This document shows positions 20,461 to 46,713 of a stretch of 46,713 bases of DNA, piece by piece. A program made the position numbers and the translations under genes. The notes beneath the pieces were generated by a model, which saw nothing but the letters and a program-made list of their open reading frames with translations, was not told where the DNA came from and did not search any database. How positions within the stretch are numbered: the stretch's first letter is position 1; each line of letters starts with the position of its first letter. The DNA is from a virus, in the IMG/VR virus record IMGVR_UViG_3300020446_001785, positions 1-46,713 of that record. The stretch is one strand, 5' to 3'.

Positions 20461-20467
20461 GATTTGC

Positions 20468-20475: not shown

Positions 20476-20495
20476 AACTATAATAGGGGTAATAA

Positions 20496-29591: not shown

Positions 29592-30095
29592 TTAACGTTC
29601 AACTACTTCACGATAATACTGATCAGACCAATTTTTATAATAATCTTTTTTGTAAAGAATTTTTCTTGCTTTGTTAAGTTTTTCCATTTCTTGTAAAAGT
29701 ATCAAAGCATAAGTTCCTTGATTTAGTTTATAGTCTAAGACTTTTTCTACCACATCTGGGTGATCTTCAAGTGCTATGAATCCTCTTTCTGTCAAAAATT
29801 TACTAGATGCAATCTCTACAGCATTGGTTAAATCATCACCTGAAATTAATTCTGGTTTACAGCCTAATACAATTACTTCTTTTCCTTTTGGCCAATGATA
29901 ACTGTAATTTTCTAATTCTGCTAAAAAGTATTCTTTCATAGTTAACCTAGATGCGTGTCTATTATCAAGTTCTTGTATTAGAATTTTATTGTTTACTAAT
30001 GCTTCTTTAGCAAAAGGACATGCAGGTAGGTTGTTAAACTCTGGCAGGTTAATGCTTAATCTATTAACAATCCATTCATTTATCTTAGATTCCAT
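29592..30095 (-). CDS. Unknown protein with CPFA motif (DUF1415-like), 167 aa
   Basis: Last gene of the three-gene minus-strand operon. I prefer ATG 30095 to an upstream GTG at 30110; it overlaps the preceding gene by 11 bases. The LPACPFAKEAL motif (residues 23-33), a central EVIVLGCKPELIS strand and a GFIALEDHPDVVEKV stretch recall the DUF1415 family, which also has a CPFA motif and no established function. The C-terminus is a charged helix with many Lys and Tyr (KARKILYKKDYYKNW). No membrane segment is seen. Coupling to the amidinotransferase suggests an accessory role on its substrate or product. The DUF resemblance is from memory and weak. Confidence 0.6.
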   Translation of the reverse strand: MESKINEWIVNRLSINLPEFNNLPACPFAKEALVNNKILIQELDNRHASRLTMKEYFLAELENYSYHWPKGKEVIVLGCKPELISGDDLTNAVEIASSKFLTERGFIALEDHPDVVEKVLDYKLNQGTYALILLQEMEKLNKARKILYKKDYYKNWSDQYYREVVER

Positions 30096-31296
30096 AGTCA
30101 ACTTGATCACCGTTACGTTTTATATCTAACGTAAGGCAATGCCAGCCACCGTCCCAAAAAAATCTATGTCTTAACGGACAAATTATAGGTTCAATTTGAT
30201 ACTTACGCAGATTTTCAAGTAAATGCGGATTTTCCGTGTTTACTACTACATGTTTACTATCAATTACTAAACAATTGACATCAAATATAGTTTCTTCTAC
30301 GTAACCTGTCCAGTTAGATATAAAACTTTCGACAAAATATGTAAATTCATCATTAGATTCTTCTTCAGGTACCCACCATTTTCCTTGATTTTTATGTTTT
30401 AGATCTTTCCAATGTTGTACTTTACCCCAATTAGGATCATCAAACCAGATGATATCCCAGCCTTCAAACAAATGTTTGTGCGGTTCTAAATCTTTGCTTG
30501 CAACCACTAGTCCTGGTTTTATCACACTAAACACAGAATCATTATGTCCGCCTATGGATAATTTTTTATAATTAAATTGTGGATATTGTTTTTCTAAAAA
30601 GTCTTCAACTACACTTGGCACCTGCCAAGTATCCACTAAACAAGTTTTTCCAATCCTTGTTAAATTAGGACTGCAAAAAGAAGATAGCATATAACCTTCA
30701 TCATTTTTATATTTTTCAATATTATCTTGTGTTGCTTCTATGTTATTTTTTCCAAGAAAGTTTTTTAAACTTCTGTCACTTCTAGCAAATTTAAATTTTC
30801 CGTCTTTAATATCACAGTCTATATTTTCTATTCCAAACCATTCAACATACTGAGGAAGCATCTTTCTTGTTGCAAATGTCCATGGATCCGTAGCTAAAAG
30901 TGTATTTCCCATCACTATACAATCGTCTCTCGGTTGCAGAGGCGGATTAGGTATTAAACTAGGACTTACACCAGTATTCCAAAAATTGTCCTCATTCTTT
31001 TCTTTATCATCGCCCACATTTTTTTTGTAGCCAATTTCGCCGTTTACGTTTACGTAATCTAAAATACTATTTTTGTAACCTAGTTTTTTGACATCAGGTT
31101 TGTATACTTTAATATTATGACTTTGCATAGTTTTTATAAAGTATTCTAAATCTTCATTTGTGTCATCTATTATTTTTTTTAAAGCGTCCCTAGCTTTGAT
31201 ATTTTTTACATCATTGAAAAAATCACTATCGTAACATGCGCCTACTACAAGTTCTTGTAGTGGCTGAAATTCGTCCCAACTGTTTATTCTATTCAT
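30085..31296 (-). CDS. Amidinotransferase-family enzyme (glycine amidinotransferase-like)
   Basis: 403 residues. The opening WDEFQPLQELVVG is the usual start of the amidinotransferase/arginine deiminase superfamily. RDDCIVMGN (about 123-131), IGGHNDSVFSVIKPGLVVAS (His251, Asp253) and GGWHCLTLDIKR (Cys387) match the catalytic His and Cys regions of arginine:glycine amidinotransferase. At the aligned position of its catalytic Asp (ADFIRAG) this protein has an Asn (N211 in PNLTRIG), judged by eye. In the family, Cys attacks the arginine guanidino carbon and passes the amidino group to an amine. It could thus make a guanidino-bearing intermediate. Length is family-typical. It overlaps both neighbours, so it is part of a minus-strand operon. 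Confidence 0.82.
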   Translation of the reverse strand: MNRINSWDEFQPLQELVVGACYDSDFFNDVKNIKARDALKKIIDDTNEDLEYFIKTMQSHNIKVYKPDVKKLGYKNSILDYVNVNGEIGYKKNVGDDKEKNEDNFWNTGVSPSLIPNPPLQPRDDCIVMGNTLLATDPWTFATRKMLPQYVEWFGIENIDCDIKDGKFKFARSDRSLKNFLGKNNIEATQDNIEKYKNDEGYMLSSFCSPNLTRIGKTCLVDTWQVPSVVEDFLEKQYPQFNYKKLSIGGHNDSVFSVIKPGLVVASKDLEPHKHLFEGWDIIWFDDPNWGKVQHWKDLKHKNQGKWWVPEEESNDEFTYFVESFISNWTGYVEETIFDVNCLVIDSKHVVVNTENPHLLENLRKYQIEPIICPLRHRFFWDGGWHCLTLDIKRNGDQVDYGI

Positions 31297-31618
31297 CTGG
31301 ATAATCCCTATATAAAAAGTGCTGTATTGTGTTTACATCCACTAAATGATTAAATCCTACATGTTCATCTTCAATATTTTCTTCGTTACTTATTACACTA
31401 GACATAGCATCATCTAATTGTTGCATATTTTGAAAATGCATATCAATTCTAAATTCAGGCATATTCATAGATCTAAAACCTAATTTCATGCGGGATAACC
31501 TGTAGCTTTCTATTCTTCCCAAATCTACCATTTTATCTAGGAATTTTTTCATACGTATAGCAAAGGTCTTAGCATTAGTATCAAGTGTGTGATCTGCATA
31601 AATGGTGTATATATCCAT
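31289..31618 (-). CDS. Small alpha/beta protein (DUF6614-like), 109 aa
   Basis: First gene of the minus-strand operon, overlapping the amidinotransferase gene by eight bases. The pattern (start YTIYADH, helix to KMVDLGRIESYRLSRMKLGF, strand PEFRIDMHF, helix QQLDDAMSSV, end FLYRDYPDE) matches small ferredoxin-like dimeric alpha/beta proteins. From memory it resembles DUF6614 (RLTRRKLGF, YRDFPD). Function of that family is not established to my knowledge. An AATAAATA octamer lies 32 bases upstream. It may be a small partner of the amidinotransferase. Confidence 0.65.
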   Translation of the reverse strand: MDIYTIYADHTLDTNAKTFAIRMKKFLDKMVDLGRIESYRLSRMKLGFRSMNMPEFRIDMHFQNMQQLDDAMSSVISNEENIEDEHVGFNHLVDVNTIQHFLYRDYPDE

Positions 31619-31675: not shown

Positions 31676-32695
31676 ATGTTAAACATGGCTTGGGATTCAG
31701 TGTCTTTATTGAGAACACACAAAACGAAAATAGTAAAACAAGTTATGGCAGGAATGTCAAATATATCCCCTGATATACCAGGTGAAAAATGTAGCAGAGA
31801 TTTAAATTATATTTTAACAGCTATTGCAGATTGTTTAGAATCCAATAATCAAAAATCATTAATGTATGTAATAAAAAATTATTTTAGAGGTGGAAAATTA
31901 CGTCTACAAAGCGTTGATTTAGAAATACAAGCATATGGTATTACAGAAAATATAATTCATAATTTATTTGATAGATACAAGATAGATACTTTATATAAAC
32001 AAAAAGTAACAGATTGTTTTGATGTGATCAAAGAAAATTTTAAAAATGGTTACACTGATACTACTTATCCTGATAATAATTGGACACAGATGTTAGAAGC
32101 TAAAAAGCAGTGTGCCACATGGAGTGATAAAAAAGTCGATAAAGAATATATAGATAGTATACTAGATGATATACATAAACACTGTAATAGTAAACAAAAT
32201 AAAGTGCCTTATGAAATAAAAGTAATGGATTGGTCTAATCCCGAACTGCGTGATTTGCTTTTCCGCCATGCTCGCGACGAAGAAACTCCTGAAGGTAAAA
32301 TTAATACACATTTTAATACGCAAGTGCTGGCTCCTTATGTGCTTTTATTTTTTGAAAGAGATGACGAAACATATGAGAGAGATGTGCTACATAAAATTTC
32401 TAATTTAGAAATAGGTTTATCTCTACAAATAGCAGCTCTTAGTGCAGTATCTAAAGGCTTGAGCATAGGTTTTTGTAAATGTTTTAATGATAAAGATAGA
32501 AATGAATTCCACAAAAAATTTAATGTCCATAGTTCTCCTAGTGTTGTTCTCGGAATTGGATATTATAAAGAATCAGACACACAAATTAATCCATATACAA
32601 ATGTAGAGTACACATCATCAATTAGCACATCAGATCTTGACAAAGAACAGTGGCACATTAAACCAGCAATGAAAGATTATATTACATATGTATAG
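31676..32695 (+). CDS. Nitroreductase-like protein with N-terminal virion-type domain
   Basis: 339 residues. Residues about 32-100 (KCSRDLNYILTAIADCLES, YVIKNYFRGGKL) resemble a 'C.RD..yI.dAi..DL..g.n' module that recurs in structural proteins of T4-like marine phages. From about 147 the pattern changes to a nitroreductase-like fold: WSDKKVDKEYIDSIL, PYEIKVMDW, the helix LEIGLSLQIAALSAVSKGLSIGFCKCF, and VVLGIGYY. In that family FMN binds at a dimer interface and NAD(P)H-dependent reduction or dehydrogenation follows; the usual Ser-Arg at the FMN site is not obvious. A GGAG site (31669-31672) is three bases before ATG 31676; ATG 31685 is an equally plausible start. It overlaps the next rSAM gene by eight bases. 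Confidence 0.6.
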   Translation: MLNMAWDSVSLLRTHKTKIVKQVMAGMSNISPDIPGEKCSRDLNYILTAIADCLESNNQKSLMYVIKNYFRGGKLRLQSVDLEIQAYGITENIIHNLFDRYKIDTLYKQKVTDCFDVIKENFKNGYTDTTYPDNNWTQMLEAKKQCATWSDKKVDKEYIDSILDDIHKHCNSKQNKVPYEIKVMDWSNPELRDLLFRHARDEETPEGKINTHFNTQVLAPYVLLFFERDDETYERDVLHKISNLEIGLSLQIAALSAVSKGLSIGFCKCFNDKDRNEFHKKFNVHSSPSVVLGIGYYKESDTQINPYTNVEYTSSISTSDLDKEQWHIKPAMKDYITYV

Positions 32696-33776
32696 ATATG
32701 AAGACATTCGTGTTATTCATTTAGAAAACACACAAAATTGTCAAGCAAATTGTCCTATGTGTGACCGGAACATGAACGGAAAGGGCATAAATCCTCATAT
32801 TGATTTGAGTGAACTCAGTGTCGATGATTGCAAACGTATATTTGAACCTAGTTTTATAAAACAACTACACACTATGTATATGTGCGGTAATCTAGGAGAT
32901 CCTATTGTAGCAAAAGATACTTTAGAAATATTCCGTTACTTTAGAGACTGTAATGAAGACATATGGCTTGGTATGAATACCAATGCTGGTGCCAAAAAGG
33001 CAGAATGGTGGAAAGAACTTGCAAAAGTATTTGGCAAAAAAGGTAGTGTCATTTTTAGTGTTGATGGTCTTAAAGATACAAATCACATTTATAGGCAAGG
33101 TGTAAACTGGAATGCAGTTGAAAGAAGCATGAAAGCATTTATATCTGCCGGAGGCAGAGCACGTTGGGACTTCTTAATATTTGAACACAACGAGCATCAA
33201 GTTGAAGAAGCTAGAGCTCTAGCAAGTTCTTGGGGTGTTGAAAGATTTACAATAAAAAAATCTGCAAGATTTGTTACAAAAGATATGCAGAAAAAACAAG
33301 AACACCAAGCAGTAAGTAAAAAAGGTTCCAATACTGCAAAAATTAAAGAAACAAAAGAAAAAAAATATCAAAATAAAGAATTAAATAAATTTACAAAGAA
33401 TGCAACTAAAAAATTTGGAGATATTAATAGTTATTATGACCTTGCTGAAATAAGTTGTAAATCAAAAAGAGATAACGAACTTTTTATTTCAGCTGAAGGT
33501 TTAGCACTACCATGTTGTTGGACAGCCGGACGTATGTATAAGTGGTGGCATGAAGATCCTAAGATTGAACAAATTTGGAATTTTATAGATGCTGTAGGCG
33601 GTAAAGATGCAATTAGTGCTAAGAAACACGGGCTACGCACAGTTTTCAAAACTGGTATATTTGATAACATAGCATCTAGTTGGGGTAAGTCAAGTTGTTC
33701 AGATGGCAAATTAAAAGTATGTAGTATGAAGTGCGGCAAAGAGTTTGATCCGTTTACAGCACAGTTTAGTAAATAA
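32688..33776 (+). CDS. Radical SAM enzyme with C-terminal SPASM-like domain (GxxxDP variant)
   Basis: 362 residues. NCQANCPMC gives C18-x3-C22-x2-C25 for the SAM cluster. Where GGEP is expected there is CGNLGDP (66-72). A TNAG strand and FSVDGLKDTNHIYR complete the core. The C-terminal part has C257, CCW at 276-278, C337, C345 and C349, a SPASM-like auxiliary cluster set. Residues 198-242 are an unusual Lys/Gln-rich polar insertion between core and SPASM region. Related closely to the next gene (same FSVDGL/FSIDGL and DTNH motifs). Coupled by an eight-base overlap to the nitroreductase-like gene. Enzyme class is firm, substrate unknown; a peptide substrate would be family-typical. Confidence 0.88.
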   Translation: MYRYEDIRVIHLENTQNCQANCPMCDRNMNGKGINPHIDLSELSVDDCKRIFEPSFIKQLHTMYMCGNLGDPIVAKDTLEIFRYFRDCNEDIWLGMNTNAGAKKAEWWKELAKVFGKKGSVIFSVDGLKDTNHIYRQGVNWNAVERSMKAFISAGGRARWDFLIFEHNEHQVEEARALASSWGVERFTIKKSARFVTKDMQKKQEHQAVSKKGSNTAKIKETKEKKYQNKELNKFTKNATKKFGDINSYYDLAEISCKSKRDNELFISAEGLALPCCWTAGRMYKWWHEDPKIEQIWNFIDAVGGKDAISAKKHGLRTVFKTGIFDNIASSWGKSSCSDGKLKVCSMKCGKEFDPFTAQFSK

Positions 33777-33786: not shown

Positions 33787-34848
33787 ATGCATTACTTAGC
33801 TAAACCGTTAACAATACAATTAGAAATAAGTTCCAACTGTAATTTGTGTTGCACAGGTTGTTGTCGTGTAGATAATGATACATATGACATTAAACCTAAT
33901 GAATACATTCCAAAAAATAAATTTTTAGATATAGATAAGTTTAAGTCTGTATTAGATGATCCAATGGGCACCCATTTTAAGAAAGTAGAATTTTGTGGAA
34001 CAATAGATGATCCTTTAATGCACCCTAAATTTTTAAATTATTTAGAATTGTTAAACGAAAAACAAATATCATGTCAAGTTCATACAAATGCAAGTCTTAG
34101 AACACCAGATTACTGGAAAGAAATAGCCTATCTAACAAAAAAGAATCCACATTCCATGGTAAAATTTAGTATTGACGGATTACATGATACAAATCATTTA
34201 TATAGAAGAGGATCTAATTGGGAAAAAATAATGGAAAACGCTCAAGCATTTATAGATGCTGGAGGTCGAGCATGGTGGCAATACATTGTTTTTGATTGGA
34301 ATAAACATCAAGTAGCTCTTGCTAGAAAACTAGCAAGAAAGATGGGATTCGATGCCTTTAAGTACAGGCATGACAGATCCTGGTCACCTAGTTCTGAGGA
34401 AGCAAAAAAAATATTTGAAACAACGTCTCCCAAAAAATATACTAAATTAAAACATTATTGGCGAGCAAGGGCAGAAAAAGTTAATCCTATAGCAAATTTA
34501 GAAATAAATTGTTTCGCACAAGAAGAAAAATATTATTTTATAGGTCATAATGGAGAAGTTTGGCCATGTTGTTTTTTAATGAATGCTAATTGGTCTCCTT
34601 TAGTACATGCACCACAATATAGACAAAGATTCATAGATAATTACGGAAAAAACTGGAATAATATTTATTATAGAACTTTTAGTGAAATATTAAACTCAGA
34701 TTTTTATTCTGCAGATTTAGTAGACAGTTGGAAAAGTAGAGAACATGGAGTAAAATGTAAAGATAGATTAATACGTTGTACCGAAACTTGCAGTGTTAAA
34801 AAGAGAAATGCAAATCCTATAGGAAATCATGAAACATTAACGTTTTAA
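33787..34848 (+). CDS. Radical SAM enzyme with C-terminal SPASM-like domain (second GxxxDP variant)
   Basis: 353 residues. SSNCNLCCTGCC gives C18-x3-C22-x2-C25 with two additional neighbouring Cys (21, 26). CGTIDDP (70-76) replaces the GGEP motif, as in the preceding gene. FSIDGLHDTNHLYRRGSNW and FDWNKHQV parallel FSVDGLKDTNHIYRQGVNW and FEHNEHQV there, so these are tandem paralogues. The Lys-rich insertion of the paralogue is absent. C-terminal Cys at 242, 261, 262 and a final C...C...C set (KCKDRLIRCTETC) suggest auxiliary clusters. Its stop overlaps the end of the minus-strand PLP-enzyme gene by 12 bases (convergent). Confidence 0.88.
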   Translation: MHYLAKPLTIQLEISSNCNLCCTGCCRVDNDTYDIKPNEYIPKNKFLDIDKFKSVLDDPMGTHFKKVEFCGTIDDPLMHPKFLNYLELLNEKQISCQVHTNASLRTPDYWKEIAYLTKKNPHSMVKFSIDGLHDTNHLYRRGSNWEKIMENAQAFIDAGGRAWWQYIVFDWNKHQVALARKLARKMGFDAFKYRHDRSWSPSSEEAKKIFETTSPKKYTKLKHYWRARAEKVNPIANLEINCFAQEEKYYFIGHNGEVWPCCFLMNANWSPLVHAPQYRQRFIDNYGKNWNNIYYRTFSEILNSDFYSADLVDSWKSREHGVKCKDRLIRCTETCSVKKRNANPIGNHETLTF

Positions 34849-35695: not shown

Positions 35696-35708
35696 GGTAA
35701 AATACGCA

Positions 35709-35716: not shown

Positions 35717-35721
35717 CAATA

Positions 35722-36909
35722 ATGAAGCCGTGTATTTTGCCTTGGATAAATTTTAGCACAAACACGTTCGGCAGACCTAGAGTCTGTGGGTATAGCAGTG
35801 TAAAAACTCCTACAAAGCTCAAAGATAGTACGTTGTCTGCAGAATGGAATAGTGACTATTTTAAAAGTATAAGAAAAGATTTTCTAGCAGGAAAATGGCC
35901 AGAAAACTGTAGTCGTTGCGAGTATGTAGAAAAGCTAAAAGGAGTAAGCAAAAGACAAGACGAAAATGGTTTTTGGTTTGATGAATACAAACATCTAATT
36001 GATCAAACAAAAGAAGATGGTAGCGTACCTTATGACCCTCCACATATAGATGTACGCACAGGTATGATATGTAATTTAAAATGTATTCATTGTGGTACAG
36101 GAGCAAGTAGTAAATGGCAGGAAGATAAATTGCTTTTAGACAAGTATCCGAACACGGAAAACTATAATATAGATAATAAATGGATTGAGAATGAATATGA
36201 TTTTTGGAATCACTTACGTAGTAAATGGCATGAAACAAAAAGATATAATTTTTTAGGAGGAGAAAGTTTTGCTAATAAACGACACAATGAATTTTTAAAA
36301 GATTTGTCAGAAACTGAACATGCAAAAAATGTGCATCTTGCATACGTATCAAATGGGACACTTATAAATGAAAATAGATTGCAACAATTAAGTAAATTCA
36401 AACATATTGTTATGAGACTTAGTATAGATGCTTTAGAAAGAGCGGGAGAATATTTTAGATTTCCTATAAAATGGGAAACGTTTACAAAACAGCTAAAGGT
36501 TATTGATAATTTTGTTGCAGGCAAAAGTAATTTTGATATAGGAGTGCAATGGACTTGCAGTAATGTAAGTATGTTTTACCTTATAGAAACTTATGATATA
36601 ATTAGAAAAGAATTTCCTAACATTAAATTTTTATTCTGCAACCATGTTGAATGGCCAATTCACATGAGTGCTCAGGTTTTACCACTTGAATTAAAAAATA
36701 AAATTAAAAATAAAATTGCTAATTACAATTTTAAAGAAAGAGACTTAGAAGATTATCCTTTTTATGTTAATCATATGATGGAAAAAGATTTATGGGGAGA
36801 GCACGGCCATACATTTATGAATTATCTAGATGATTTGGATACTGCAAGAAAGATTAGTTGGAAACACAATTTTCAAGAAATGGAATTAGACAAGTATGAT
36901 CCAAGATAA
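35722..36909 (+). CDS. Twitch-type radical SAM enzyme 1 of 6
   Basis: 395 residues. C4 (CILPW), C22 and C63-x2-C66 form the N-terminal Cys-rich 'twitch' region typical of the N_Twi_rSAM family. The usual CC pair is a single Cys here. GMICNLKCIHC gives C117-x3-C121-x2-C124 for the SAM cluster, and FLGGES (GGE 179-181) is the SAM motif, followed by VSNGT. The family puts the auxiliary cluster domain before rather than after the core. Reaction unknown. It is the first gene of a strongly coupled run, directly after an exact late octamer. It overlaps the next start by 14 bases. Confidence 0.88.
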   Translation: MKPCILPWINFSTNTFGRPRVCGYSSVKTPTKLKDSTLSAEWNSDYFKSIRKDFLAGKWPENCSRCEYVEKLKGVSKRQDENGFWFDEYKHLIDQTKEDGSVPYDPPHIDVRTGMICNLKCIHCGTGASSKWQEDKLLLDKYPNTENYNIDNKWIENEYDFWNHLRSKWHETKRYNFLGGESFANKRHNEFLKDLSETEHAKNVHLAYVSNGTLINENRLQQLSKFKHIVMRLSIDALERAGEYFRFPIKWETFTKQLKVIDNFVAGKSNFDIGVQWTCSNVSMFYLIETYDIIRKEFPNIKFLFCNHVEWPIHMSAQVLPLELKNKIKNKIANYNFKERDLEDYPFYVNHMMEKDLWGEHGHTFMNYLDDLDTARKISWKHNFQEMELDKYDPR

Positions 36910-38041
36910 ACCATTATGCTATGCTCCTTTTATCGGAATGTATGCCACAGGATATGAGCAATTTGCACCTTGTTGTGTTGCAAAAAAAGATACCTATAAG
37001 GATTTAGATCCAGTAGATTATTGGCAAAGTGAAGAGTTACAAAAAATAAGAAAAGATTTGCTTGCAGGAAAATGGCCAGATGCATGTTCTTTTTGTAAAA
37101 ATAAATCTGCTAAAGGGTTGAAAAGCGAAACATGGATATGGGACAAGCATATGTCTAAAGTAGATGTTGAGTTAGATATTCAACATGGTAATACTACAAA
37201 AGGACCTTTGTTCTTAGATTATAGACCCAGTAACTTGTGTAATTTAAAATGTAGAATGTGTGTACCAAATGCTAGTAGTCAAATTACAAAAGAATTCCAA
37301 GAAAATCCAGAAATGCAAAAATGGTTTTCTGCACCAGAAAAAGTAGTAAAGAACTTTGATTTGTTTAAAAATTTTACAAATAATATACAATTGAAACAGA
37401 TAAAAATTTTGGGGGGAGAACCTACACTCGATCCGTTAGTATTAGACTTTTTAGAAGAAATAATTGATCATTATGATACATTGCCAGCACTTAGATTTAC
37501 TACGAACGGCACCAATTTAAATAAAAGATTTCGTAATATAATGGAAAAATTTAAAGATATACATATTGTGTTTAGTGTTGATGCAGTTGGCAATGCTTAT
37601 GAATATATCCGTACAAATGCAAATTGGAAAAAAACAAAAAAAATTATTGAAGAAATATTTGAAAAAGATATGGCAAAAATATATGGATTTAACATTGTAC
37701 TAATGCCTTACAATGTATTTCATCTATCTGATTTACTAGATTGGTTTGCTACATTAAAAAATATGAATTATGAATTTGAAACTTTTTATGAATTAAGTGA
37801 AGGATATAATACTGAAATGAGTAGTGTGTTACCTAATCATATGAAAAGTGCAATCAAATCATTGCAAGATTGGAGTCAAAAAAATAATTATGACATAAGT
37901 GATATATTGAGTTTATTAGATTCTGTAAAATTTGACGAAAAAGCATTTGATTACTTTAAAGAATATAATAATAAATTAGATGGTATTAGAAAAACATCAT
38001 TTGTAAATCTAGATAAAAGGTTTGTAGAATATGTCGTATAG
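36896..38041 (+). CDS. Twitch-type radical SAM enzyme 2 of 6
   Basis: 381 residues, the shortest of the six. N-terminal Cys at 8, 26, 27 (APCCV), 64 and 67 (CSFC) define the twitch region. NLCNLKCRMC gives C115-x3-C119-x2-C122, and ILGGEPT (GGEP 173-176) with TTNGT completes the core. FSVDAVGNAYEYIR is the strand normally seen in this family. The gene begins inside the preceding one, and its last 11 bases overlap the next gene. Like its neighbours it has no signal or membrane segment. Distinct spacing and sequence outside the Cys motifs suggest it acts on a different substrate or step from the others. Confidence 0.88.
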   Translation: MIQDKPLCYAPFIGMYATGYEQFAPCCVAKKDTYKDLDPVDYWQSEELQKIRKDLLAGKWPDACSFCKNKSAKGLKSETWIWDKHMSKVDVELDIQHGNTTKGPLFLDYRPSNLCNLKCRMCVPNASSQITKEFQENPEMQKWFSAPEKVVKNFDLFKNFTNNIQLKQIKILGGEPTLDPLVLDFLEEIIDHYDTLPALRFTTNGTNLNKRFRNIMEKFKDIHIVFSVDAVGNAYEYIRTNANWKKTKKIIEEIFEKDMAKIYGFNIVLMPYNVFHLSDLLDWFATLKNMNYEFETFYELSEGYNTEMSSVLPNHMKSAIKSLQDWSQKNNYDISDILSLLDSVKFDEKAFDYFKEYNNKLDGIRKTSFVNLDKRFVEYVV

Positions 38042-39335
38042 CACGAAAAAAATACCTAAAATATTGCAACAAAATAAATCTATTTGTATTTTACCTTGGA
38101 TACATACATCAGTCAAACCAAACAGTGAAGCTAAACCTTGTTGTAGATTTCAACATTACCTGCCTGAACATAAAGATATTAAAGAAGTAAATGTAATTGA
38201 TTTTAAAACTCCTACAGAAATATTAAATAGCGATCCATATAAAAATATTAGAGATAAAATGCTTAAAGGAGAACCAATTCCAGGATGTAGTAAGTGCTAT
38301 AGAGAAGAAGCCAGGCAAGGACATAGCATGCGAATGGGAGAATGGGAAGATTACGATTCAGAAAATATTATAAAAAACAATGATATTAAATTAAGATATT
38401 TAGAAGTTGCATTTGGAAATTACTGTAATTTGGCCTGTAGGACATGTAATTCAGAACTGTCCACTAATTGGTATGAAGATGATGTACAATTATATGAAAA
38501 AAGAGGTTATGCCGATCGAAGACCTTGGAAAAAAGTCACTGATGTGGAATATAATTGGCAAGCTGAAGAATTGTCAGAATTAAAACAAATTAAATTTACA
38601 GGAGGTGAACCTATGTTGCATCCTAAATTTGTAAATTTTATTGATATATTAATTAATGCAGATATTGCAAAAAATATTACTTTAGAAATATTTACAAATT
38701 GCAGTTGGATACCAAAGAAAAAAATACTAGATAGATTAGGCAAATTTAAAGGATTACAGATTTGCATGTCTATAGATGGCTTTGGCAAAATAAATGATTA
38801 TTTAAGGCACAAGTCAAAATGGAATACTGTGCATGGCAGTTTACTTGCATGGTTGGATTATGAAAAAGACAATAAAGGTGTACGAGCTATATTATCACCT
38901 ACTATATCTATATATAATATGTTCGATGCATTTGAATTGGCAGACAAATATGCAGAATATAGAATAGCAAGAGGATTGACTGTCAAATTAAAGGATATGA
39001 AAATTTCTACAGCGGTGTTTCCAGAATATGTTAATTTTAGAAATGTTGCAGATAAGCCAAAAGCATTAAATTATTTAGATGACTTGTTTAAAAAGTACGT
39101 AAGTTCTTTCCCTGATAATAATGATATAGAGTGGGGAGCAAGACATCATACAGTAAACAGAATGTATACAAAAATTAAAAATGAACTGAAAAATGAAAAG
39201 AAAGGTGTAGATGCTAAATTTGTTACATTTATACGAGATTTAGATGAATTACGTAAACAAAGATTACGAGACTATATTCCAAATTTGTACAACTATTTAG
39301 AAGATTGTGTGTGGGACGATTATGGAAAGAAGTAA
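38031..39335 (+). CDS. Twitch-type radical SAM enzyme 3 of 6
   Basis: 434 residues. Cys19 (ICILPWIHTSV), Cys37-38 (KPCCRF), Cys86 and Cys89 (CSKCYREEARQGHSMR) form a complete N-terminal twitch motif with the classic 'C..CY..E..G..S.R' ending. YCNLACRTC gives C132-x3-C136-x2-C139. KFTGGEPMLHP has GGEP at 191-194, and MSIDGFGKINDYLR is the usual core strand. The C-terminus is helical and charged. ATG 38031 overlaps the previous gene by 11 bases. Family and cofactor binding are clear, substrate is not. Confidence 0.9.
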   Translation: MSYSTKKIPKILQQNKSICILPWIHTSVKPNSEAKPCCRFQHYLPEHKDIKEVNVIDFKTPTEILNSDPYKNIRDKMLKGEPIPGCSKCYREEARQGHSMRMGEWEDYDSENIIKNNDIKLRYLEVAFGNYCNLACRTCNSELSTNWYEDDVQLYEKRGYADRRPWKKVTDVEYNWQAEELSELKQIKFTGGEPMLHPKFVNFIDILINADIAKNITLEIFTNCSWIPKKKILDRLGKFKGLQICMSIDGFGKINDYLRHKSKWNTVHGSLLAWLDYEKDNKGVRAILSPTISIYNMFDAFELADKYAEYRIARGLTVKLKDMKISTAVFPEYVNFRNVADKPKALNYLDDLFKKYVSSFPDNNDIEWGARHHTVNRMYTKIKNELKNEKKGVDAKFVTFIRDLDELRKQRLRDYIPNLYNYLEDCVWDDYGKK

Positions 39336-40623
39336 CACATTTTGCATTATGCCGTTTGTGCATCAAAATTTAAAACAAGAGGGAAGAGTCACAGCCTGTT
39401 GGAGAGCTCAAGGTGATTTAGGAAATAGCACACATGATAGCCTTTTACAAATTTTCAACAGTAACGAAACCAAGGAACTTAGAAGAGCTTTGCTAAATGG
39501 AGAAAGACCAGAAGGATGTAGAAGTTGTTGGGATACAGAGAATGCAAATATAGAAAGCACCAGACAACAATGTTTAACAAATTGGAAATTTGAAAATGAA
39601 AAAATTAATTTTGCTGACGGAGCAATGGGAAGCAATACAGATAATACAATTAATTTAGAAAAGTATGTAAGACAAAATATAAAAGAGGATTACAGTTATC
39701 CTGTTAATAATTTAAAAAGTATAGAAGTTAGATTTGATAACATATGTAATTTGATGTGTAGACATTGTAGTCCTGTATATAGTAGTCTCTGGGAAAAAGC
39801 TGTGAAAAAAATGCCTAGCATGCAAGAAGCTTCGGGAGGCAAACGCAGAGAAACTACACACATTAGTTTGACGGAAAATATAGTAAACGAAATAGAGTTA
39901 CTTGCTCCAAGTTTGCAAGAAATATTAATTACAGGAGGAGAACCTTTATATCATACGAAACATTATGATTTTTTAAAAAATTTAGAACCATATGCAGAAA
40001 ATATTATTCTTAATTACAATTCAAATTTTACAACTTTAGAATATGCAGGTAAAAGTATACTTCCTTTATGGAAAAAATTTAAAAAGGTTGGAGTATTAGT
40101 AAGTTTAGATGCTTGTCCTGATATATATCCTTATGTTAGAGTGTACGGAAAAATAGATAAAGTTGAAAAAAATATTAAAACTGCTTTACAAGAATTACAT
40201 AATATAAATTTGCAATCAACTTGTACTACAAGTGTTCTAAACATAACGAGATTAGTTGATGTTTTCAAATATTATGTATCATTACGTACAGGAGTGCATA
40301 CTAGTATTGTACAATATCCTAGCCCACTTAATCCTAGGGTTTTGCCAAAAGCTATCAAAGACAAAGCTACAATTGAATGGGATCAATTCTGTAATCAACT
40401 TGATTCATTTATAGACTCTCAAGATATAAGTGAAAAATTTAAAGATTATTACAAACGACGTTTGCCTAAAGTAGGCGGAAAAATGATAAAATATATGAAT
40501 TCAAGAGACGAATATGATCCTGGATGGAAAAGTTTTATTGAATTTGCAAAAATTCAAGATACCTATCATAAAACAAATATACTAGACTATTATCCAGAAT
40601 TTACGGAGTATTGGGATGCCTAA
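39322..40623 (+). CDS. Twitch-type radical SAM enzyme 4 of 6
   Basis: 433 residues from ATG 39322, preferred over the in-frame GTG at 39307 because FCIMPFVH then lies at the family-typical distance from the N-terminus. Cys8, Cys26 (single, ACWRAQ, where others have CC), Cys66 and Cys69 (CRSCWDTE) form the twitch region. NICNLMCRHC gives C142-x3-C146-x2-C149. ITGGEPLYHT has GGEP at 205-208, and LVSLDACPDIYPYVR is a variant core strand. It starts 14 bases inside its predecessor and overlaps the next gene by eight bases. Confidence 0.88.
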   Translation: MERSNTFCIMPFVHQNLKQEGRVTACWRAQGDLGNSTHDSLLQIFNSNETKELRRALLNGERPEGCRSCWDTENANIESTRQQCLTNWKFENEKINFADGAMGSNTDNTINLEKYVRQNIKEDYSYPVNNLKSIEVRFDNICNLMCRHCSPVYSSLWEKAVKKMPSMQEASGGKRRETTHISLTENIVNEIELLAPSLQEILITGGEPLYHTKHYDFLKNLEPYAENIILNYNSNFTTLEYAGKSILPLWKKFKKVGVLVSLDACPDIYPYVRVYGKIDKVEKNIKTALQELHNINLQSTCTTSVLNITRLVDVFKYYVSLRTGVHTSIVQYPSPLNPRVLPKAIKDKATIEWDQFCNQLDSFIDSQDISEKFKDYYKRRLPKVGGKMIKYMNSRDEYDPGWKSFIEFAKIQDTYHKTNILDYYPEFTEYWDA

Positions 40624-41920
40624 TACATTTTGTCCAATTCCTTGGAACTTTCAAGCTGTCCAAAACAACGGTACTGTCCGTGTATGCTGTCAAATGAATA
40701 TGACACTTAGTAGAGGCACATTGTTTAAAGAAGATGGTAGTCCTTACAATGCAGGGACAGATGATCTTAAAAAAGCTAGAAACGCAAAACTTATTAAAAA
40801 TGTTAGAAAAGACATGTTAGAAGGAAAGTGGCCTAATGAATGTATGAGGTGTAAACAAGAAGAAGAAAGTGGATTACGAAGCAGAAGAATTTATGAAAAT
40901 GAAGCTTGGAATTTAAATCTACATCAGGCTAAGGAATTTACTGACGCAGACGGAACAATAGATGATGAAAAGTATCCATTGGTATATTATGATTTACGTT
41001 TTGGCAATTTGTGCAATTTAGCTTGTAGAATGTGTGGTCCCGAAGATAGTCATACATGGTACAAAGATTGGGCAAAAATGTATGGTACTGAATGGGAAGA
41101 CACACATGGAAAAGTAAAATTAGAAAAAAATAAAAAAGGTAGATGGGTGACTGATGCTTATGACTGGCACTACAGCACAAAATTTTGGAATCATATAGAA
41201 TCTAATTTAAAAAACATAGAACATGTTTATATGGCCGGCGGAGAGCCCTTAATGATAGAAAGGCATTATGAATTCTTACAAAAATGTATAGATGCAAATG
41301 TAGCAAAAAATATTGTAATTGAATACAATACCAATTTGACTAATATACCTCCAAAAGTTTTACCTCTATGGGAAAAGTTTAAAAATATAAGAGTAGGAGC
41401 AAGTATAGACGGCATAGGCGATGTTTTAGAATACCAGAGGTATCCTGCTAAATGGAAAGCTATAGAAAAAAATATGAAACTATTAGACTCTATGCCAGAT
41501 AACATTTCTGCTTGGATAGCCTGTACAATCACAAATATAAATGTATATCATATTACAGAATTCATTGAATGGATTGTAAATCAAAATTTTAAAAAAATAA
41601 ATTCTGGCAAAACAAAAATACTAACGCATCATGTGTGTCATAAGCCCTGGTATAGTAGTGTAAGAGTTTTACCAAAAAATATTAAAAATGATATTTTAAA
41701 TCATTACGAAGTTTGGAAACAAAAAAATAATTTTAAAGATGAAAAAATCAGTACACGATCTCACGCAATACTGGACAGTATAAGTAAGTATATGTTAGCA
41801 AAAGACGAAGAGAACAAGCTCGAAAATTTTGTTACCTATACAAAAGAATTAGATATATTGCGTAATCAAAATATTTTAAACATTGTACCACAATACGAGG
41901 AGTTATTTTGTGACAACTAA
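40616..41920 (+). CDS. Twitch-type radical SAM enzyme 5 of 6
   Basis: 434 residues. Cys6 (FCPIPW), Cys24-25 (VRVCCQM), Cys76 and Cys79 (CMRCKQEEESGLRSRR) make a full twitch motif. RFGNLCNLACRMC gives C133-x3-C137-x2-C140. YMAGGEPLM has GGEP at 208-211; IEYNTNLT and GASIDGIGDVLEYQR follow. Closest of the six to the sixth member by eye (same RFG...C, YMAGGE / YFAGGE and WHY/WHK segments). Overlaps its predecessor by eight bases and the next gene by 11. Confidence 0.9.
   Translation: MPNTFCPIPWNFQAVQNNGTVRVCCQMNMTLSRGTLFKEDGSPYNAGTDDLKKARNAKLIKNVRKDMLEGKWPNECMRCKQEEESGLRSRRIYENEAWNLNLHQAKEFTDADGTIDDEKYPLVYYDLRFGNLCNLACRMCGPEDSHTWYKDWAKMYGTEWEDTHGKVKLEKNKKGRWVTDAYDWHYSTKFWNHIESNLKNIEHVYMAGGEPLMIERHYEFLQKCIDANVAKNIVIEYNTNLTNIPPKVLPLWEKFKNIRVGASIDGIGDVLEYQRYPAKWKAIEKNMKLLDSMPDNISAWIACTITNINVYHITEFIEWIVNQNFKKINSGKTKILTHHVCHKPWYSSVRVLPKNIKNDILNHYEVWKQKNNFKDEKISTRSHAILDSISKYMLAKDEENKLENFVTYTKELDILRNQNILNIVPQYEELFCDN
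41897..41902 (+). promoter_or_regulatory. Strong Shine-Dalgarno deciding a GTG start
   Basis: GAGGAG lies seven bases before GTG 41910 and selects it over the in-frame TTG at 41883. Confidence 0.7.
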
Positions 41921-43316
41921 ATACCCTTCAGATACATTTTGTTTATTACCCTGGGTACATTTAAGCACACGTCCTGATGGAAGCATGCGAGTATGTTGCA
42001 CAGCTAACGCAAGTTCAGTAGGTGCAACAAACGACAAAGCACATGGCGGCCAAGTCGGTATTTTAAAAACTTCTGATGGGAAACCTAACAATTTAAATGT
42101 AAGTGATTTTGAAAGTGCTTGGAATAGCGATTATATGAAAAACGTCCGTTTACAAATGTTAAACGGTGAACAACCTCCGAGTTGTTTAAAATGTTACAAA
42201 GAAGAAGCCGCAGGACATAGAAGTAAAAGACAATGGGAAACACATTACTGGAGTCAACGTGTAGATCTTGATAAAATATTAGCTGATACACAACCAGACG
42301 GACAAGTGCCTCCTAATCTTGCGTATATAGATTTACGGTTTGGAACCAAATGTCAACTAGCATGTGTTATGTGTAGTCCACATGACAGCAGTGGATGGAT
42401 AAAAGATTATAAAAAGATTTTTCCTGCTGTTAAAAATGAATCTTTAAAAGAAATAATGCAATGGAAAGATAAAGGATCTACCAACGGTAGTAGCTATAAT
42501 TGGCATAAACAAAATCCTATATTTTGGAAACAATTTTATGAACAAATGCCTAGTATGCAACAAATATATTTTGCAGGAGGTGAAAGTTTAATTATTGAAG
42601 AACATTATGAAATATTAGAACATGCAATCAAAATGGGATATGCAAAAGATTTAGAGTTGAGATATAATTCTAATGGAGTAGAATGGCGTGATGATTTATT
42701 TGAACTATGGAGTCATTTTAAATTAGTACGTTTTCACTATAGTATTGACAGTATTAAAGAAATGAATGATTATATTAGGTATCCAAGTGATTGGGCAAAC
42801 CAAGTCAACACTTTTCATAGGTTAGATAACGAAACAACTAATAATGTAGAAGTTACTATTGCATGTGCAGTACAGGCGTTGAATATATACTATTTGCCAG
42901 ATCTAATTCAATGGAAACTCGAACAAAATTTTAAAAAAATTAACATGTGGCCTTTTGGTGCAGGAGGTATTAGTCAACATTTTGTTTATTGGCCTGGGCA
43001 TCTAAATGTAAAAGTATTGCCAGAATGGTTTAAAAAAGAATGCCATAGGAAATACGAAAATTGGTATCCTTGGTGGGAAAAGAATTGGGAACTGGGTGTG
43101 CCTAGTTGGCATAAGGGTAAAATTAGTTATGATCAATGGCGTAGTGCAGAATACGGAATCAAACGGTTAGAGGGAATATTAAGTTTCGCAGATAGCGAAG
43201 ATTGGAGTAGGCGCTTACCTGAAATGCAAGAATTTTTAGGACTTTGTGATAAGCAACGTGGTATAACATTTGCAGATACATTTCCTGAAATGAAAGATAT
43301 TTTTAAAGATATTTAA
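41910..43316 (+). CDS. Twitch-type radical SAM enzyme 6 of 6 (GTG start)
   Basis: 468 residues from GTG 41910, the longest of the six. Cys11 (FCLLPWVHLS), Cys29-30 (MRVCCTA), Cys92 and Cys95 (CLKCYKEEAAGHRSKRQ) give a full twitch motif. FGTKCQLACVMC gives C148-x3-C152-x2-C155. YFAGGESLI has GGES at 223-226, and RFHYSIDSIKEMNDYIR is the core strand. The C-terminal part is rich in Trp (WYPWWEKNW, VPSWHKG). The start overlaps the previous stop by 11 bases. A sigma70-type promoter begins in the base after its stop, so the six-gene run ends here. Confidence 0.9.
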   Translation: MTTKYPSDTFCLLPWVHLSTRPDGSMRVCCTANASSVGATNDKAHGGQVGILKTSDGKPNNLNVSDFESAWNSDYMKNVRLQMLNGEQPPSCLKCYKEEAAGHRSKRQWETHYWSQRVDLDKILADTQPDGQVPPNLAYIDLRFGTKCQLACVMCSPHDSSGWIKDYKKIFPAVKNESLKEIMQWKDKGSTNGSSYNWHKQNPIFWKQFYEQMPSMQQIYFAGGESLIIEEHYEILEHAIKMGYAKDLELRYNSNGVEWRDDLFELWSHFKLVRFHYSIDSIKEMNDYIRYPSDWANQVNTFHRLDNETTNNVEVTIACAVQALNIYYLPDLIQWKLEQNFKKINMWPFGAGGISQHFVYWPGHLNVKVLPEWFKKECHRKYENWYPWWEKNWELGVPSWHKGKISYDQWRSAEYGIKRLEGILSFADSEDWSRRLPEMQEFLGLCDKQRGITFADTFPEMKDIFKDI

Positions 43317-43350: not shown

Positions 43351-44466
43351 ATGAACGAAGATTTAAAATGGAGTAATTATGATTTTTCAAAAATACCGTT
43401 TGACGACATTATTAAAGTCGGCCAAAGGACGCTTTTATACAGAGATCTTTTTACTGTTAGTTGGCTTCTTGGTCGCTTTTGCAACTATCGTTGTAGTTAT
43501 TGCTGGCCATACGCCAGATCAGATCGTAAAGATCACAGGCCAACAGAGCTCTGTCTTCTTACAATCGATGAGATAAAGAGACAAGCCCGTGCTAATGGTT
43601 TTAACAGTTTTCATTTTTCTTTATCTGGGGGTGAGCCTACTTTCCATCCAGGATACTTGGACATCCTTAGGCATTTGGCTTCTGATGTCAGCAACACTAA
43701 TTATACTAGTATCCACATGACATCTAATTGTTCAAGACCTGTAAAATGGTTTGAACAATATGTTGAATATGCAAAACCTTTTCATAGAGCAAGTATTACT
43801 GCTAGTTTACATGTTGAACATGTTAACACAAAAGAAAAAATGCAAGAGTTCGCTGACAAATTAATATTATGTCAAGAACATGATGTACAAGTAACAATTA
43901 ATCAGGTTATGGTTCCAGAACATTTTGAAAGGGACTGGGAAAATGCTCTCTTCTTTCATGAACAAGGAATCAATGTTACACTAAAACCACAATCAGATCC
44001 TACAGCATCACGAGTAGTTGATGGGTACAAAGACGAAGACCTTAAAAGACTATGGAATGGTATGCCACAACGAGCTTACACAGAAAGTAAACGTAAATTT
44101 GTAAACCGTCCTAAACCTACATTTGAACTGCCTAAAGATATAATGGGCAAAAATGATGCTAGTGTGCCTTGGCATATGCAGGTAGAATTAAAAGATTCTA
44201 ATGATAAAAAGTGGTATATGGACCAAGCAGAACGGTTTAATGCCTTTAATTTTAACAATTTCGAAGGATGGGCATGTAACGCCGGTTACAGCGGAATAAT
44301 AATACGGGAGCCTGACGGTTCGGTAAAACGTAGCTATTCTTGCCATGATGCACCTCTTGGTAACATTGAAACAGGTTTTCAGCTATTTAAGACACCTAAA
44401 ACGTGTATAACGAAAAGTTGTGTATCTAGTGCAGATAGTAAAATACCTAAGAGGAAAATTATATGA
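43351..44466 (+). CDS. Radical SAM enzyme with C-terminal Cys-rich tail, own promoter
   Basis: 371 residues. GRFCNYRCSYC gives C44-x3-C48-x2-C51 and LSGGEPT (GGEP 93-96) the SAM motif; MTSNCSRP follows. The C-terminus (WACNAG, SYSCHDAPLGNIETG, CITKSC) parallels the tail of the rSAM gene at 28195, so these two form a subfamily separate from the twitch array. The first ~110 codons use CTT, CGT/CGC, GCC and GAG more than neighbours, which prefer TTA and AGA, suggesting separate origin or recombination. No Shine-Dalgarno sequence precedes ATG 43351 and no earlier in-frame start exists after the upstream stop. Its stop overlaps the next gene (ATGA). Confidence 0.87.
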   Translation: MNEDLKWSNYDFSKIPFDDIIKVGQRTLLYRDLFTVSWLLGRFCNYRCSYCWPYARSDRKDHRPTELCLLTIDEIKRQARANGFNSFHFSLSGGEPTFHPGYLDILRHLASDVSNTNYTSIHMTSNCSRPVKWFEQYVEYAKPFHRASITASLHVEHVNTKEKMQEFADKLILCQEHDVQVTINQVMVPEHFERDWENALFFHEQGINVTLKPQSDPTASRVVDGYKDEDLKRLWNGMPQRAYTESKRKFVNRPKPTFELPKDIMGKNDASVPWHMQVELKDSNDKKWYMDQAERFNAFNFNNFEGWACNAGYSGIIIREPDGSVKRSYSCHDAPLGNIETGFQLFKTPKTCITKSCVSSADSKIPKRKII

Positions 44467-45899: not shown

Positions 45900-46713
45900 A
45901 TGAGTCTAAAAATCCTTATATCACAACCTAATCTCTACGATTCTAAGGTTTTCATGCCATTAGTTTTTTTATGTCTCAAAACCTATGTGGATAAAAGAAC
46001 TGATGTAAGTCCTGTTACGTGGTTAGATCCTTTATTCAGAAATACAGATTGTAATACTATGTTAAAAGACGTAGATACTAAAAATGTAGACATATTAGGA
46101 TTAAGCTGTTATGATTGGAATTGGAGTTTACAGTTACAAATAGCAAAACAAGTTAAACAGGATAATCCTAATGTGCTTGTAGTAGCTGGAGGACCGCATC
46201 CTGATTGGAAAGACAAAGACTTTTTCAAAAAATATCCACAGATCGACATTGTAGTATACAATGATGGGGAAAGACCGTTTGCAGAAATTGTAAAAGCTGT
46301 TCAAAACGGAACTAATTTTGATAAAATAGATAATTTAATCATGCCGCATTTAAAAACTCCTCCTAGTGATTTATTTAAAGAGTTTGATGTCAGTCCTTGG
46401 TTGGAAAATAAACAATGGGTATTAGATTTTAAGAAAAAGTATATTGACAACGGAAAAAATAAACAGTTTACGCTTTTATGGGAAACAGATAGGGGCTGTC
46501 CGTTCAAATGTGCGTTTTGTGATTGGGGTAGTGCAACAAATAGCAAAGTTAGAAGATATCCCGAAGACAGAATTAGAAAAGAAATAGACTTTTTTACAGA
46601 AGAATTAGGTGTAGATGTGCTTTATCATGTTGGAGCCAATCTAGGTATCTTTCCAAGAGACTTAGAATTTGTAAAATATATTTGTGAAAAGAAAAAAGAG
46701 ACTGGATTTCCTA
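45900..46713 (+). CDS. B12-binding-domain radical SAM enzyme (3' end outside window)
   Basis: The frame is open to the window end, so at least 271 residues are present. ATG 45900 starts KILISQP. Residues 58-135 have the B12-binding-domain pattern (VDILGLSCYDWNWSLQL, VVAGGPHPDW, DIVVYNDGERPFAEI), without the classic DxHxxG base-off motif, as is usual for this rSAM class. DRGCPFKCAFCDWG then gives C200-x3-C204-x2-C207. Enzymes of this class include cobalamin-dependent C- and P-methyltransferases and others that build rings or methylate unactivated carbons. Upstream context (hydrolase, oxygenase) fits a late tailoring step. The reaction is unknown and the C-terminus is not visible. Confidence 0.85.
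   Translation, partial: MSLKILISQPNLYDSKVFMPLVFLCLKTYVDKRTDVSPVTWLDPLFRNTDCNTMLKDVDTKNVDILGLSCYDWNWSLQLQIAKQVKQDNPNVLVVAGGPHPDWKDKDFFKKYPQIDIVVYNDGERPFAEIVKAVQNGTNFDKIDNLIMPHLKTPPSDLFKEFDVSPWLENKQWVLDFKKKYIDNGKNKQFTLLWETDRGCPFKCAFCDWGSATNSKVRRYPEDRIRKEIDFFTEELGVDVLYHVGANLGIFPRDLEFVKYICEKKKETGFP

What the first reader, a model, noticed from the sequence alone, without database searches (positions are those of the whole stretch)
35722..43316. Run of six coupled N-terminal-twitch rSAM paralogues
Six consecutive genes share an N-terminal Cys set (C...CC...CxxC; the CC pair is a single Cys in members 1 and 4) and the SAM motifs, but differ in length and C-terminal sequence, and each start overlaps the previous gene. 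Repeated duplication and divergence in a compact phage genome implies selection for several related reactions, such as serial modification of one polymer or peptide.
Basis: partly seen in the sequence, partly recalled or inferred. Interest (0 to 1): 0.75.

Follow-up and report, generated by a model that had tools for sequence, protein, structure and literature searches.

The report
Shuffled radical-SAM enzyme cassette in phages
Six neighbouring radical-SAM enzyme genes in a marine phage turn out to be long-diverged family members gathered side by side rather than fresh duplicates, part of a highly variable gene island that probably builds and decorates an unusual surface sugar.

Summary
Six coupled ORFs (35722-43316) all pass the NCBIfam N_Twi_rSAM cut-off and keep both Cys sets. 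The proposed origin is not supported: no two of the six are sisters in a 341-protein tree, and an AU test rejects the six as one clade (p = 0.00016). Each has its own orthologues in other phages. Member 6 is a core gene (78-92% identity in the 80 loci listed); members 1-5 form an accessory haplotype found in about five distinct phages. In window plus 80 loci, 624 of 1610 crude genes are radical-SAM-like, with 1-9 N-twitch members per locus. The core (two-domain GT-A-like protein, p279, rSAM 32688, member 6, rSAM 43351) recurs in Bdellovibrionota MAGs, partly among GT2 glycosyltransferases; there member 6 and rSAM 43351 share 14 of 15 and 14 of 16 genomes (290 searched). Best reading: a hypervariable island beside tail-fibre genes that makes and tailors a surface glycan or glycoconjugate. 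The substrate is inferred; peptide is the main rival. Found in print only in passing (PMC7029224).

The parts
35722..36909 (+). T1: N-twitch radical SAM protein, 395 aa (accessory; linked to the 34837 gene)
   Evidence: NF033640 300 bits; own clade; 9 relatives in viral contigs
36896..38041 (+). T2: N-twitch radical SAM protein, 381 aa (accessory)
   Evidence: NF033640 246 bits; own clade
38031..39335 (+). T3: N-twitch radical SAM protein, 434 aa (accessory; fastest diverging)
   Evidence: NF033640 298 bits; 67% to L017/L166, 37-41% to L170 and L167
39322..40623 (+). T4: N-twitch radical SAM protein, single Cys at the CC position (accessory; lies after T6 in L034 and L170)
   Evidence: NF033640 308 bits; start ATG 39322 by reading
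40616..41920 (+). T5: N-twitch radical SAM protein, 434 aa (accessory; T5-like genes also in Bdellovibrionota)
   Evidence: NF033640 393 bits
41910..43316 (+). T6: N-twitch radical SAM protein, CORE gene of the island, 468 aa from GTG 41910
   Evidence: NF033640 420 bits; 78-92% id in the 80 loci kept; AF2 pLDDT 92.1
43351..44466 (+). rS371: core radical SAM protein, partner of T6
   Evidence: 70% or more identical copy in 35 of 48 phage loci with 9.5 kb or more downstream; co-occurrence in Bdellovibrionota
32688..33776 (+). rS362: core radical SAM protein
   Evidence: found in 61 of 64 phage loci with 9.5 kb or more upstream; next to T6 or rS371 in several Bdellovibrionota loci
33787..34848 (+). 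rS353: radical SAM protein with C-terminal SPASM (accessory)
   Evidence: PF04055 and PF13186
34837..35709 (-). AT290: probable PLP-fold aminotransferase-like protein, linked to T1
   Evidence: weak NF006967 match, 24 bits against a 402 cut-off; no PDB sequence match; an AT290-like gene in each listed T1 locus
31676..32695 (+). NTR: possible nitroreductase-like protein (accessory)
   Evidence: PF00881 19.9 bits, below its cut-off; no PDB sequence support
30085..31296 (-). AMT: amidinotransferase-like protein (accessory)
   Evidence: phmmer to HsvA, SxtG and glycine amidinotransferase, best 6.1e-9 over the C-terminal part
31289..31618 (-). p109: DUF6614 protein (accessory)
   Evidence: PF20319 2.5e-21
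28195..29142 (+). rS315: radical SAM protein (accessory)
   Evidence: PF04055 2.6e-10
27977..28198 (+). p73: conserved 73-aa protein of unknown function (phage core)
   Evidence: 64 members in the gene clustering; alignment; no Pfam match
27138..27977 (+). p279: core protein, possibly a Rossmann methyltransferase; fused to the GT protein in 17 phage genes
   Evidence: Spermine_synth E 0.019, sub-threshold; no useful PDB sequence match; fusions
25562..27154 (+). GT530: core protein with two tandem GT-A-like domains, DGD motif in each
   Evidence: AF2 pLDDT 86.9; Foldseek best chondroitin polymerase 3.2e-6; VIA Z about 12 to GT-A enzymes; DGD at 63-65 and 364-366
45900..46713 (+). B12-binding radical SAM protein, runs off the contig
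   Evidence: PF02310 1.3e-13, PF04055 sub-threshold
16511..22004 (+). three tail-fibre-like genes a short way upstream of the island
   Evidence: PHROG tail and virion structural matches

Best explanation
The six genes are one haplotype of a hypervariable biosynthetic island carried by uncultivated, probably jumbo, phages next to their tail-fibre genes. SHOWN: (i) a core of GT530 (two GT-A-like domains), p279, rS362, T6 and rS371 recurs across phage loci and in Bdellovibrionota MAGs; (ii) between and around the core genes sit changing sets of divergent N-twitch radical-SAM enzymes with PP-loop ATPases, nitroreductase-like, amidinotransferase-like, oxygenase and methyltransferase genes; (iii) T1-T6 belong to different lineages and are co-inherited as a set under purifying selection. 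INFERRED: GT530 builds or extends a sugar chain, the core radical-SAM enzymes (rS362, T6, rS371) make a common modification, and the variable N-twitch enzymes each make a different radical-chemistry change (oxidation, epimerisation, C-C or C-N bond formation) on the same glycan or glycoconjugate, with the fully Cys-ligated N-terminal Fe-S cluster passing electrons. The product would alter the infected cell's surface (blocking rival phages) or decorate the virion, and cassette shuffling would diversify it.
For: Tree and AU test. Core conservation in phages: rS362 in 61 of 64, p279 in 60 of 64, GT530 in 59 of 64, p73 in 52 of 64, rS371 in 35 of 48 loci with enough flank. In 290 genomes of the phylum of G013 (Bdellovibrionota) T6 (E<=1e-90) occurs in 15 and rS371 in 16; 14 hold both, on the same contig within about 3.2 kb (hypergeometric 7e-21, relatedness ignored). 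The one with T6 alone (G011) is L093, whose contig ends in rS371; the two with rS371 alone (G112, G233) have a TGA inside it. GT530 folds as tandem GT-A domains and is fused to p279 in 17 genes. Neighbours in eight Bdellovibrionota core loci: 13 of 72 scanned proteins are Glycos_transf_2; the eight whole genomes hold 137 such hits in about 28.8 Mb, i.e. about 0.7 expected in the 149 kb of the loci, against 14 that I place inside them, in 5 of the 8. Phage accessory genes include CTP_transf_3, UDP-glucose dehydrogenase and carbamoyltransferase and a PseF-like cytidylyltransferase at 8.6e-25, below that model's cut-off. Vibrio phage K566 interleaves five N-twitch rSAM genes with two genes that I read by eye as glycosyltransferases, near a gene annotated PagP, a lipid A acylation protein.
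Against: No flippase or polymerase and no nucleotide-sugar gene was identified in the window itself. T6's closest folds are tied between peptide maturases (CteB, SkfB, SuiB, anSME) and sugar or nucleotide enzymes (DesII, BlsE, viperin), all Z about 11, so fold does not name the substrate. GT530's nearest folds also include the peptide S-glycosyltransferases SunS and ThuS, and GT-A is shared with nucleotidyltransferases such as IspD. Three of the eight Bdellovibrionota core loci have no GT2 hit, and GT genes cluster, so the enrichment is not a clean probability. p73, conserved in the phages, was not seen in the Bdellovibrionota loci and has no explanation. rS371 was not found in 13 of 48 phage loci with 9.5 kb of downstream sequence.
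Confidence: 0.5

Rival explanations
1. Peptide modification: the N-twitch enzymes are RiPP-type maturases, or modify a virion protein such as the neighbouring tail fibres; GT530 would be a peptide or protein glycosyltransferase.
For: Best PDB sequence match of the T6 profile is SkfB (6.7e-10); top Foldseek hits are CteB, SkfB and SuiB; GT530 resembles SunS/ThuS among others; the island lies near tail-fibre genes; a small conserved protein, p73, sits in the core.
Against: No gap between genes from 31289 to 46712 exceeds 57 nt, so no separate precursor gene fits there unless it overlaps a gene; p73 is uniform across phages, not leader plus variable core; the RiPP-maturase models in NCBIfam are far below cut-off; in Bdellovibrionota the core often lies among GT2 genes.
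Confidence: 0.25
2. Nucleobase or DNA hypermodification, or another small molecule: rSAM, PP-loop (QueC-like), PLP and amidinotransferase-like enzymes build a modified base or metabolite.
For: QueE-like PHROG matches of several members, QueC in 3 of 135 accessory representatives, SGGxDS PP-loop genes in 46 of 81 loci, N-twitch to PP-loop fusions.
Against: QueC matches are far below the NCBIfam QueC cut-off, best 38 bits against 150; GT530 and the GT2 context are not explained; the same core sits in bacterial MAGs. The other 7-deazaguanine genes were not searched for.
Confidence: 0.1
3. Local tandem duplication and divergence of one ancestral gene.
For: Adjacent, same strand, same family, coupled starts; one real tandem N-twitch fusion exists in L010.
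Against: No two of the six are sisters in the 341-row tree; AU test rejects one clade.
Confidence: 0.03
4. Viperin-like antiviral or nucleotide-modifying enzymes.
For: Weak pVip matches; viperins among structural neighbours.
Against: In one search the viperin model gives 33, 37, 32 and 18 bits for members 1, 2, 3 and 6 and is not listed for 4 and 5, against a cut-off of 180; the N-terminal cluster domain is extra.
Confidence: 0.03

Closest known systems
NCBIfam NF033640 N_Twi_rSAM (twitch domain-containing radical SAM protein)
   Same: All six members exceed the curated cut-off over nearly the full model.
   Different: The model names a subfamily without function; here one member is a phage core gene and five are accessory, part of a radiation of 81 clusters at 45% identity.
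Host recognition cluster of pelagimyophages (PMC7029224; I saw the passages returned by 'find')
   Same: Hypervariable island with tail fibres and glycosyltransferases; two of those genomes differ there only by added radical-SAM cassettes.
   Different: Those are T4-like phages with the island between the VrlC gene and gp14; here the giant virion protein is jumbo-phage-like, and a fixed rSAM core shared with Bdellovibrionota is defined.
N-twitch rSAM cluster of Vibrio phage K566
   Same: Five N-twitch rSAM genes beside two glycosyltransferase-like genes (read by eye) and an annotated PagP gene.
   Different: Only 23-27% identity to the window members; no match to rS362 or rS371 was reported for it.
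SPASM/Twitch radical SAM enzymes (SkfB, CteB, SuiB, anSME; BlsE and DesII for sugars)
   Same: Same rSAM barrel, Z about 11; SPASM-like Cys pattern found by Pfam in members 3, 4 and 6.
   Different: The auxiliary cluster domain lies before the barrel, not after it.

Membership tests
N_Twi_rSAM (NF033640) | score over the curated cut-off of 170 bits | tested here: met
   246-420 bits for all six
N_Twi_rSAM (NF033640) | N-terminal auxiliary Cys set before the CxxxCxxC | tested here: met
   alignment of six and of 90
SPASM/Twitch rSAM | auxiliary Fe-S domain C-terminal to the barrel | tested here: not met
   Cys set and SPASM match lie at residues 13-105, before the barrel, in T3, T4 and T6; rS353, not one of the six, has it C-terminally
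RiPP maturase system | score over the cut-off of a curated RiPP-maturase model | tested here: not met
   all such matches far below cut-off
RiPP maturase system | adjacent precursor peptide | tested here: inconclusive
   no room for a separate gene: largest gap 57 nt from 31289 to 46712; overlapping or distant precursors not excluded
Viperin | score over the prokaryotic viperin cut-off of 180 bits | tested here: not met
   at most 37 bits among the six
Tandem duplicate array | members form one clade relative to homologues elsewhere | tested here: not met
   AU p = 0.000158, tree of 341
Surface-glycan biosynthesis locus | dedicated glycosyltransferase | tested here: inconclusive
   GT530 has a GT-A-like fold and DGD motifs; activity unknown, and GT-A is shared with nucleotidyltransferases
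Surface-glycan biosynthesis locus | nucleotide-sugar supply genes | tested here: inconclusive
   present in some relatives, none identified in the window
Surface-glycan biosynthesis locus | flippase, polymerase or ligase | not tested
   not searched for specifically
Pelagimyophage host recognition cluster | variable island next to tail fibres | tested here: met
Pelagimyophage host recognition cluster | position between the VrlC gene and gp14 | not tested

The most novel reading that the evidence does not exclude
A combinatorial radical-chemistry system for a surface glycoconjugate, shared by jumbo phages and predatory-lineage bacteria (Bdellovibrionota): a fixed core (two-domain glycosyltransferase plus three radical-SAM enzymes) makes a common scaffold, and interchangeable N-twitch radical-SAM cassettes, dozens of families, each install a different modification, giving each phage its own product for host recognition or for excluding rivals. 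Nothing I found in print describes it (searches, in an open-access library only).
Probability: 0.35. Interest if true: 0.85.

Novelty: new variant of a known kind. Interest (0 to 1): 0.62.

Why it matters
Radical-SAM enzymes are among the most versatile catalysts known, yet the N-twitch subfamily has no assigned reaction in the curated library used here. A compact island in which about 39% of crude gene calls are radical-SAM-like (624 of 1610), with a tightly paired core that also occurs in Bdellovibrionota, turns 'unknown rSAM' into a testable pathway. It offers a defined three-enzyme core to reconstitute, natural gene-content variants to compare, and phages on record (nt-1, K566) to manipulate. 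If the glycan reading is right, phages evolve surface chemistry by shuffling radical enzymes.

Tried and rejected
Local duplication: rejected by tree and AU test. Free-standing RiPP with a nearby precursor: no gap over 57 nt around the array; p73 considered as precursor and disfavoured because it is uniform and has no Cys in the window copy. Viperin or defence: below cut-off. Fold comparison as a guide to substrate: uninformative, peptide and sugar enzymes tie. In the T6 listing the part of the model before about residue 115 is barely tested, so its absence from the list shows nothing. PDB sequence searches for AT290, p279 and NTR gave nothing useful. I first read membrane-protein pairs near the Bdellovibrionota loci as HTTM-like from memory; the scans gave only a sub-threshold DoxD match or nothing, so I do not use it. 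Literature: eight of ten searches used; none describes the array. One paper (PMC7029224) was opened, only the 'find' passages; all others I saw only as search listings.

Limits: gene calls in loci are crude longest-ORF picks; loci include near-duplicates (L167/L168/L169 99.9%, L171/L174 100%, L166 and L017 the same contig; several others look alike) that were not collapsed. The 80 T6 loci are the best 80 of 189 relatives, so presence of T6 there is by construction. The tree's 172 'bacterial' rows come from L089-L165 and include rows from Vibrio phage K566 and from MAG contigs that may be phage. pN/pS is a simple Nei-Gojobori count. Genome sizes are rounded; I placed GT2 hits inside loci by contig number and coordinates. 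Host not determined.
Full report
WHAT IS THERE. The six ORFs at 35722-43316 are real and all are N-terminal-twitch radical-SAM proteins: each passes the curated NF033640 cut-off over nearly the full model, carries CxxxCxxC, GGE and the N-terminal C...C(C)...CxxC. In 90 aligned family members the four N-terminal Cys (C20, C38, C101, C104 in member 6) and the three barrel Cys are invariant. Four invariant Cys suggest a fully ligated auxiliary cluster, more likely for electron transfer or structure than for binding substrate directly (inference from known SPASM/Twitch enzymes, recalled). Starts 2-6 overlap the previous stop by 14, 11, 14, 8 and 11 nt when the likely starts ATG 39322 and GTG 41910 are used. 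The AF2 model of member 6 is confident (pLDDT 92.1).

THE SIX ARE NOT LOCAL DUPLICATES. The other five are 23-30% identical to member 1. In a FastTree of 341 N-twitch proteins (169 phage rows including the six, 172 from loci L089-L165) each sits with its own orthologues; the smallest clade containing any two of the six has 36 leaves and support 19 (T1/T4), T5 and T6 share a clade of 70 leaves (support 88), and T3 parts from the other five at the midpoint root. Holding the six together is rejected, p-AU 0.000158, on a 62-row tree. Long branches are common in that tree, which is a caution.

CORE AND CASSETTE. A scan with T6 found 189 relatives in viral contigs; the best 80 were kept, at 78-92% identity. 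T1 gave 9 (the patterns differ, so this is only a rough comparison). Around T6 the order GT530 - p279 - p73 - rS362 - [variable] - T6 - [variable] - rS371 recurs: rS362 in 61 of 64, p279 in 60 of 64, GT530 in 59 of 64, p73 in 52 of 64 loci with 9.5 kb or more upstream, rS371 in 35 of 48 with 9.5 kb or more downstream, 19 to 9059 bp after T6. Between them the content changes: N-twitch genes number 1-9 per locus, the longest consecutive run is six (window, L017, L034), and 322 N-twitch proteins fall into 81 clusters at 45% identity, the T6 cluster holding 81 proteins, one per locus. In all, 624 of 1610 crude gene calls are radical-SAM-like. In nine longer records (106-382 kb) most N-twitch hits lie in one region, with some outlying copies, for example in G003 and G006.

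THE WINDOW'S HAPLOTYPE. AT290(-)-T1-T2-T3-T4-T5-T6 occurs in this order in the window, L017 (=L166) and L167 (with near-identical L168, L169). L034 and L170 carry it with T4 after T6, and L170 without a detected T2. The upstream genes p145, p172, AMT, p109 and rS353, mostly also rS315 and rS362 and, in the window and L166, NTR, travel with it. Identities to L017 range from 96% (T1) to 67% (T3) and dS from 0.45 to 1.87, so the block looks mosaic; pN/pS is 0.058-0.298, so all six are constrained.

BACTERIAL PARTNERS. In Bdellovibrionota MAGs (L092-L097, L112, L117; L094 is labelled only 'bacterium'; L095 lies on a 937-kb contig) T6 (57-60%) stands near rS371 (56-67%) and/or rS362 (41-45%), often with GT530-like and p279-like genes, T5-like N-twitch genes and AT290-like genes (L112 lacks rS371 in its 14.8 kb, L094 lacks the close rS362). 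In 290 genomes of that phylum T6 is in 15 and rS371 in 16 at E<=1e-90; 14 have both on the same contig, which is unlikely by chance (7e-21, ignoring relatedness). The exceptions are a contig end (G011 = L093) and two rS371 copies with an internal TGA (G112, G233). In eight core loci 13 of 72 scanned neighbours are GT2 glycosyltransferases. Background is 137 GT2 hits in about 28.8 Mb, i.e. about 0.7 expected in 149 kb; by contig coordinates 14 hits fall inside, in five of eight loci.

WHAT IT PROBABLY DOES. GT530, core and fused to p279 in 17 phage genes, is predicted as two GT-A-like domains (pLDDT 86.9, pTM 0.56, so their relative placement is unsure), each with a DGD; the best Foldseek match is the two-domain chondroitin polymerase (3.2e-6). 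Accessory genes include sugar-nucleotide enzymes (CTP_transf_3, UDP-glucose dehydrogenase), a PseF-like cytidylyltransferase below its cut-off, carbamoyltransferase, PP-loop ATPases in 46 of 81 loci, and amidinotransferase-like proteins. Six phage genes fuse an N-twitch enzyme to a further stretch of about 400 residues; in L056, which I translated, it carries a PP-loop motif (SGGADS), and Pfam and NCBIfam give only sub-threshold PP-loop matches to others of the set. Vibrio phage K566 mixes five N-twitch genes with two glycosyltransferase-like genes and lies near a PagP annotation; a KVP40-like phage, nt-1, has one rSAM gene, also a few kb from PagP. Together these favour assembly and decoration of a surface glycan or glycoconjugate. 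The alternative, peptide or fibre modification, is not excluded: fold comparison ties both kinds of enzyme.

NOVELTY. The family is catalogued but unassigned; radical-SAM cassettes in a phage host-recognition cluster were noted in passing for pelagimyophages (PMC7029224, passages). I found no description of the core, the shared Bdellovibrionota module or the haplotype (an open-access library, so absence is weak evidence). I call it a new variant of a known kind.

Noticed in passing
102-15872: A 5256-aa ORF whose N-terminal quarter matches PHROG 10938 and jumbo-phage virion proteins (Atu_ph07, Phosso, PA5oct) at about 30% identity.
   Followed up: partly
27977-28198: p73: very conserved 73-aa protein (ATNNNI..FNK.AHHNSQNWY..) found in this phage group and three phage-like MAG contigs; no family match, function unknown.
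   Followed up: partly
L010:14445-16988: One ORF with two N-twitch radical-SAM halves in tandem (847 aa, two CxxxCxxC, two SPASM-like and two barrel matches).
   Followed up: partly
L056:12607-15138 (also L047, L053, L054, L060, L061): N-twitch radical-SAM protein with a roughly 400-residue C-terminal extension, PP-loop ATPase-like where examined, a natural fusion hinting at coupled radical and ATP-dependent steps.
   Followed up: partly
L089 (Vibrio phage K566 155319-180287): Vibrio phage with five N-twitch rSAM genes among glycosyltransferase-like genes and an annotated PagP, a possible experimental model.
   Followed up: partly
G112:C15:539-1702 and G233:C8:139744-140886: In the two Bdellovibrionota genomes with rS371 but no T6 hit, rS371 has an internal TGA, suggesting decay of the pair together.
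   Followed up: no
L041:1-392: Tryptophan-halogenase-like gene start in a phage island (one Trp_halogenase match among 135 representatives; assignment to this gene by eye).
   Followed up: no
L090, L098, L099: MAG contigs labelled Neisseriaceae, Rickettsiales and Gammaproteobacteria carry the phage-type p73 and core order and are probably misbinned phage.
   Followed up: no
31289-31618: p109 is a DUF6614 protein tightly linked to the amidinotransferase-like gene across phages carrying this haplotype.
   Followed up: no
L107:3-4277: A long ORF with weak similarity (27%) to the window's tail-fibre-like gene 20496-22004 near N-twitch genes in a Bdellovibrio MAG.
   Followed up: no
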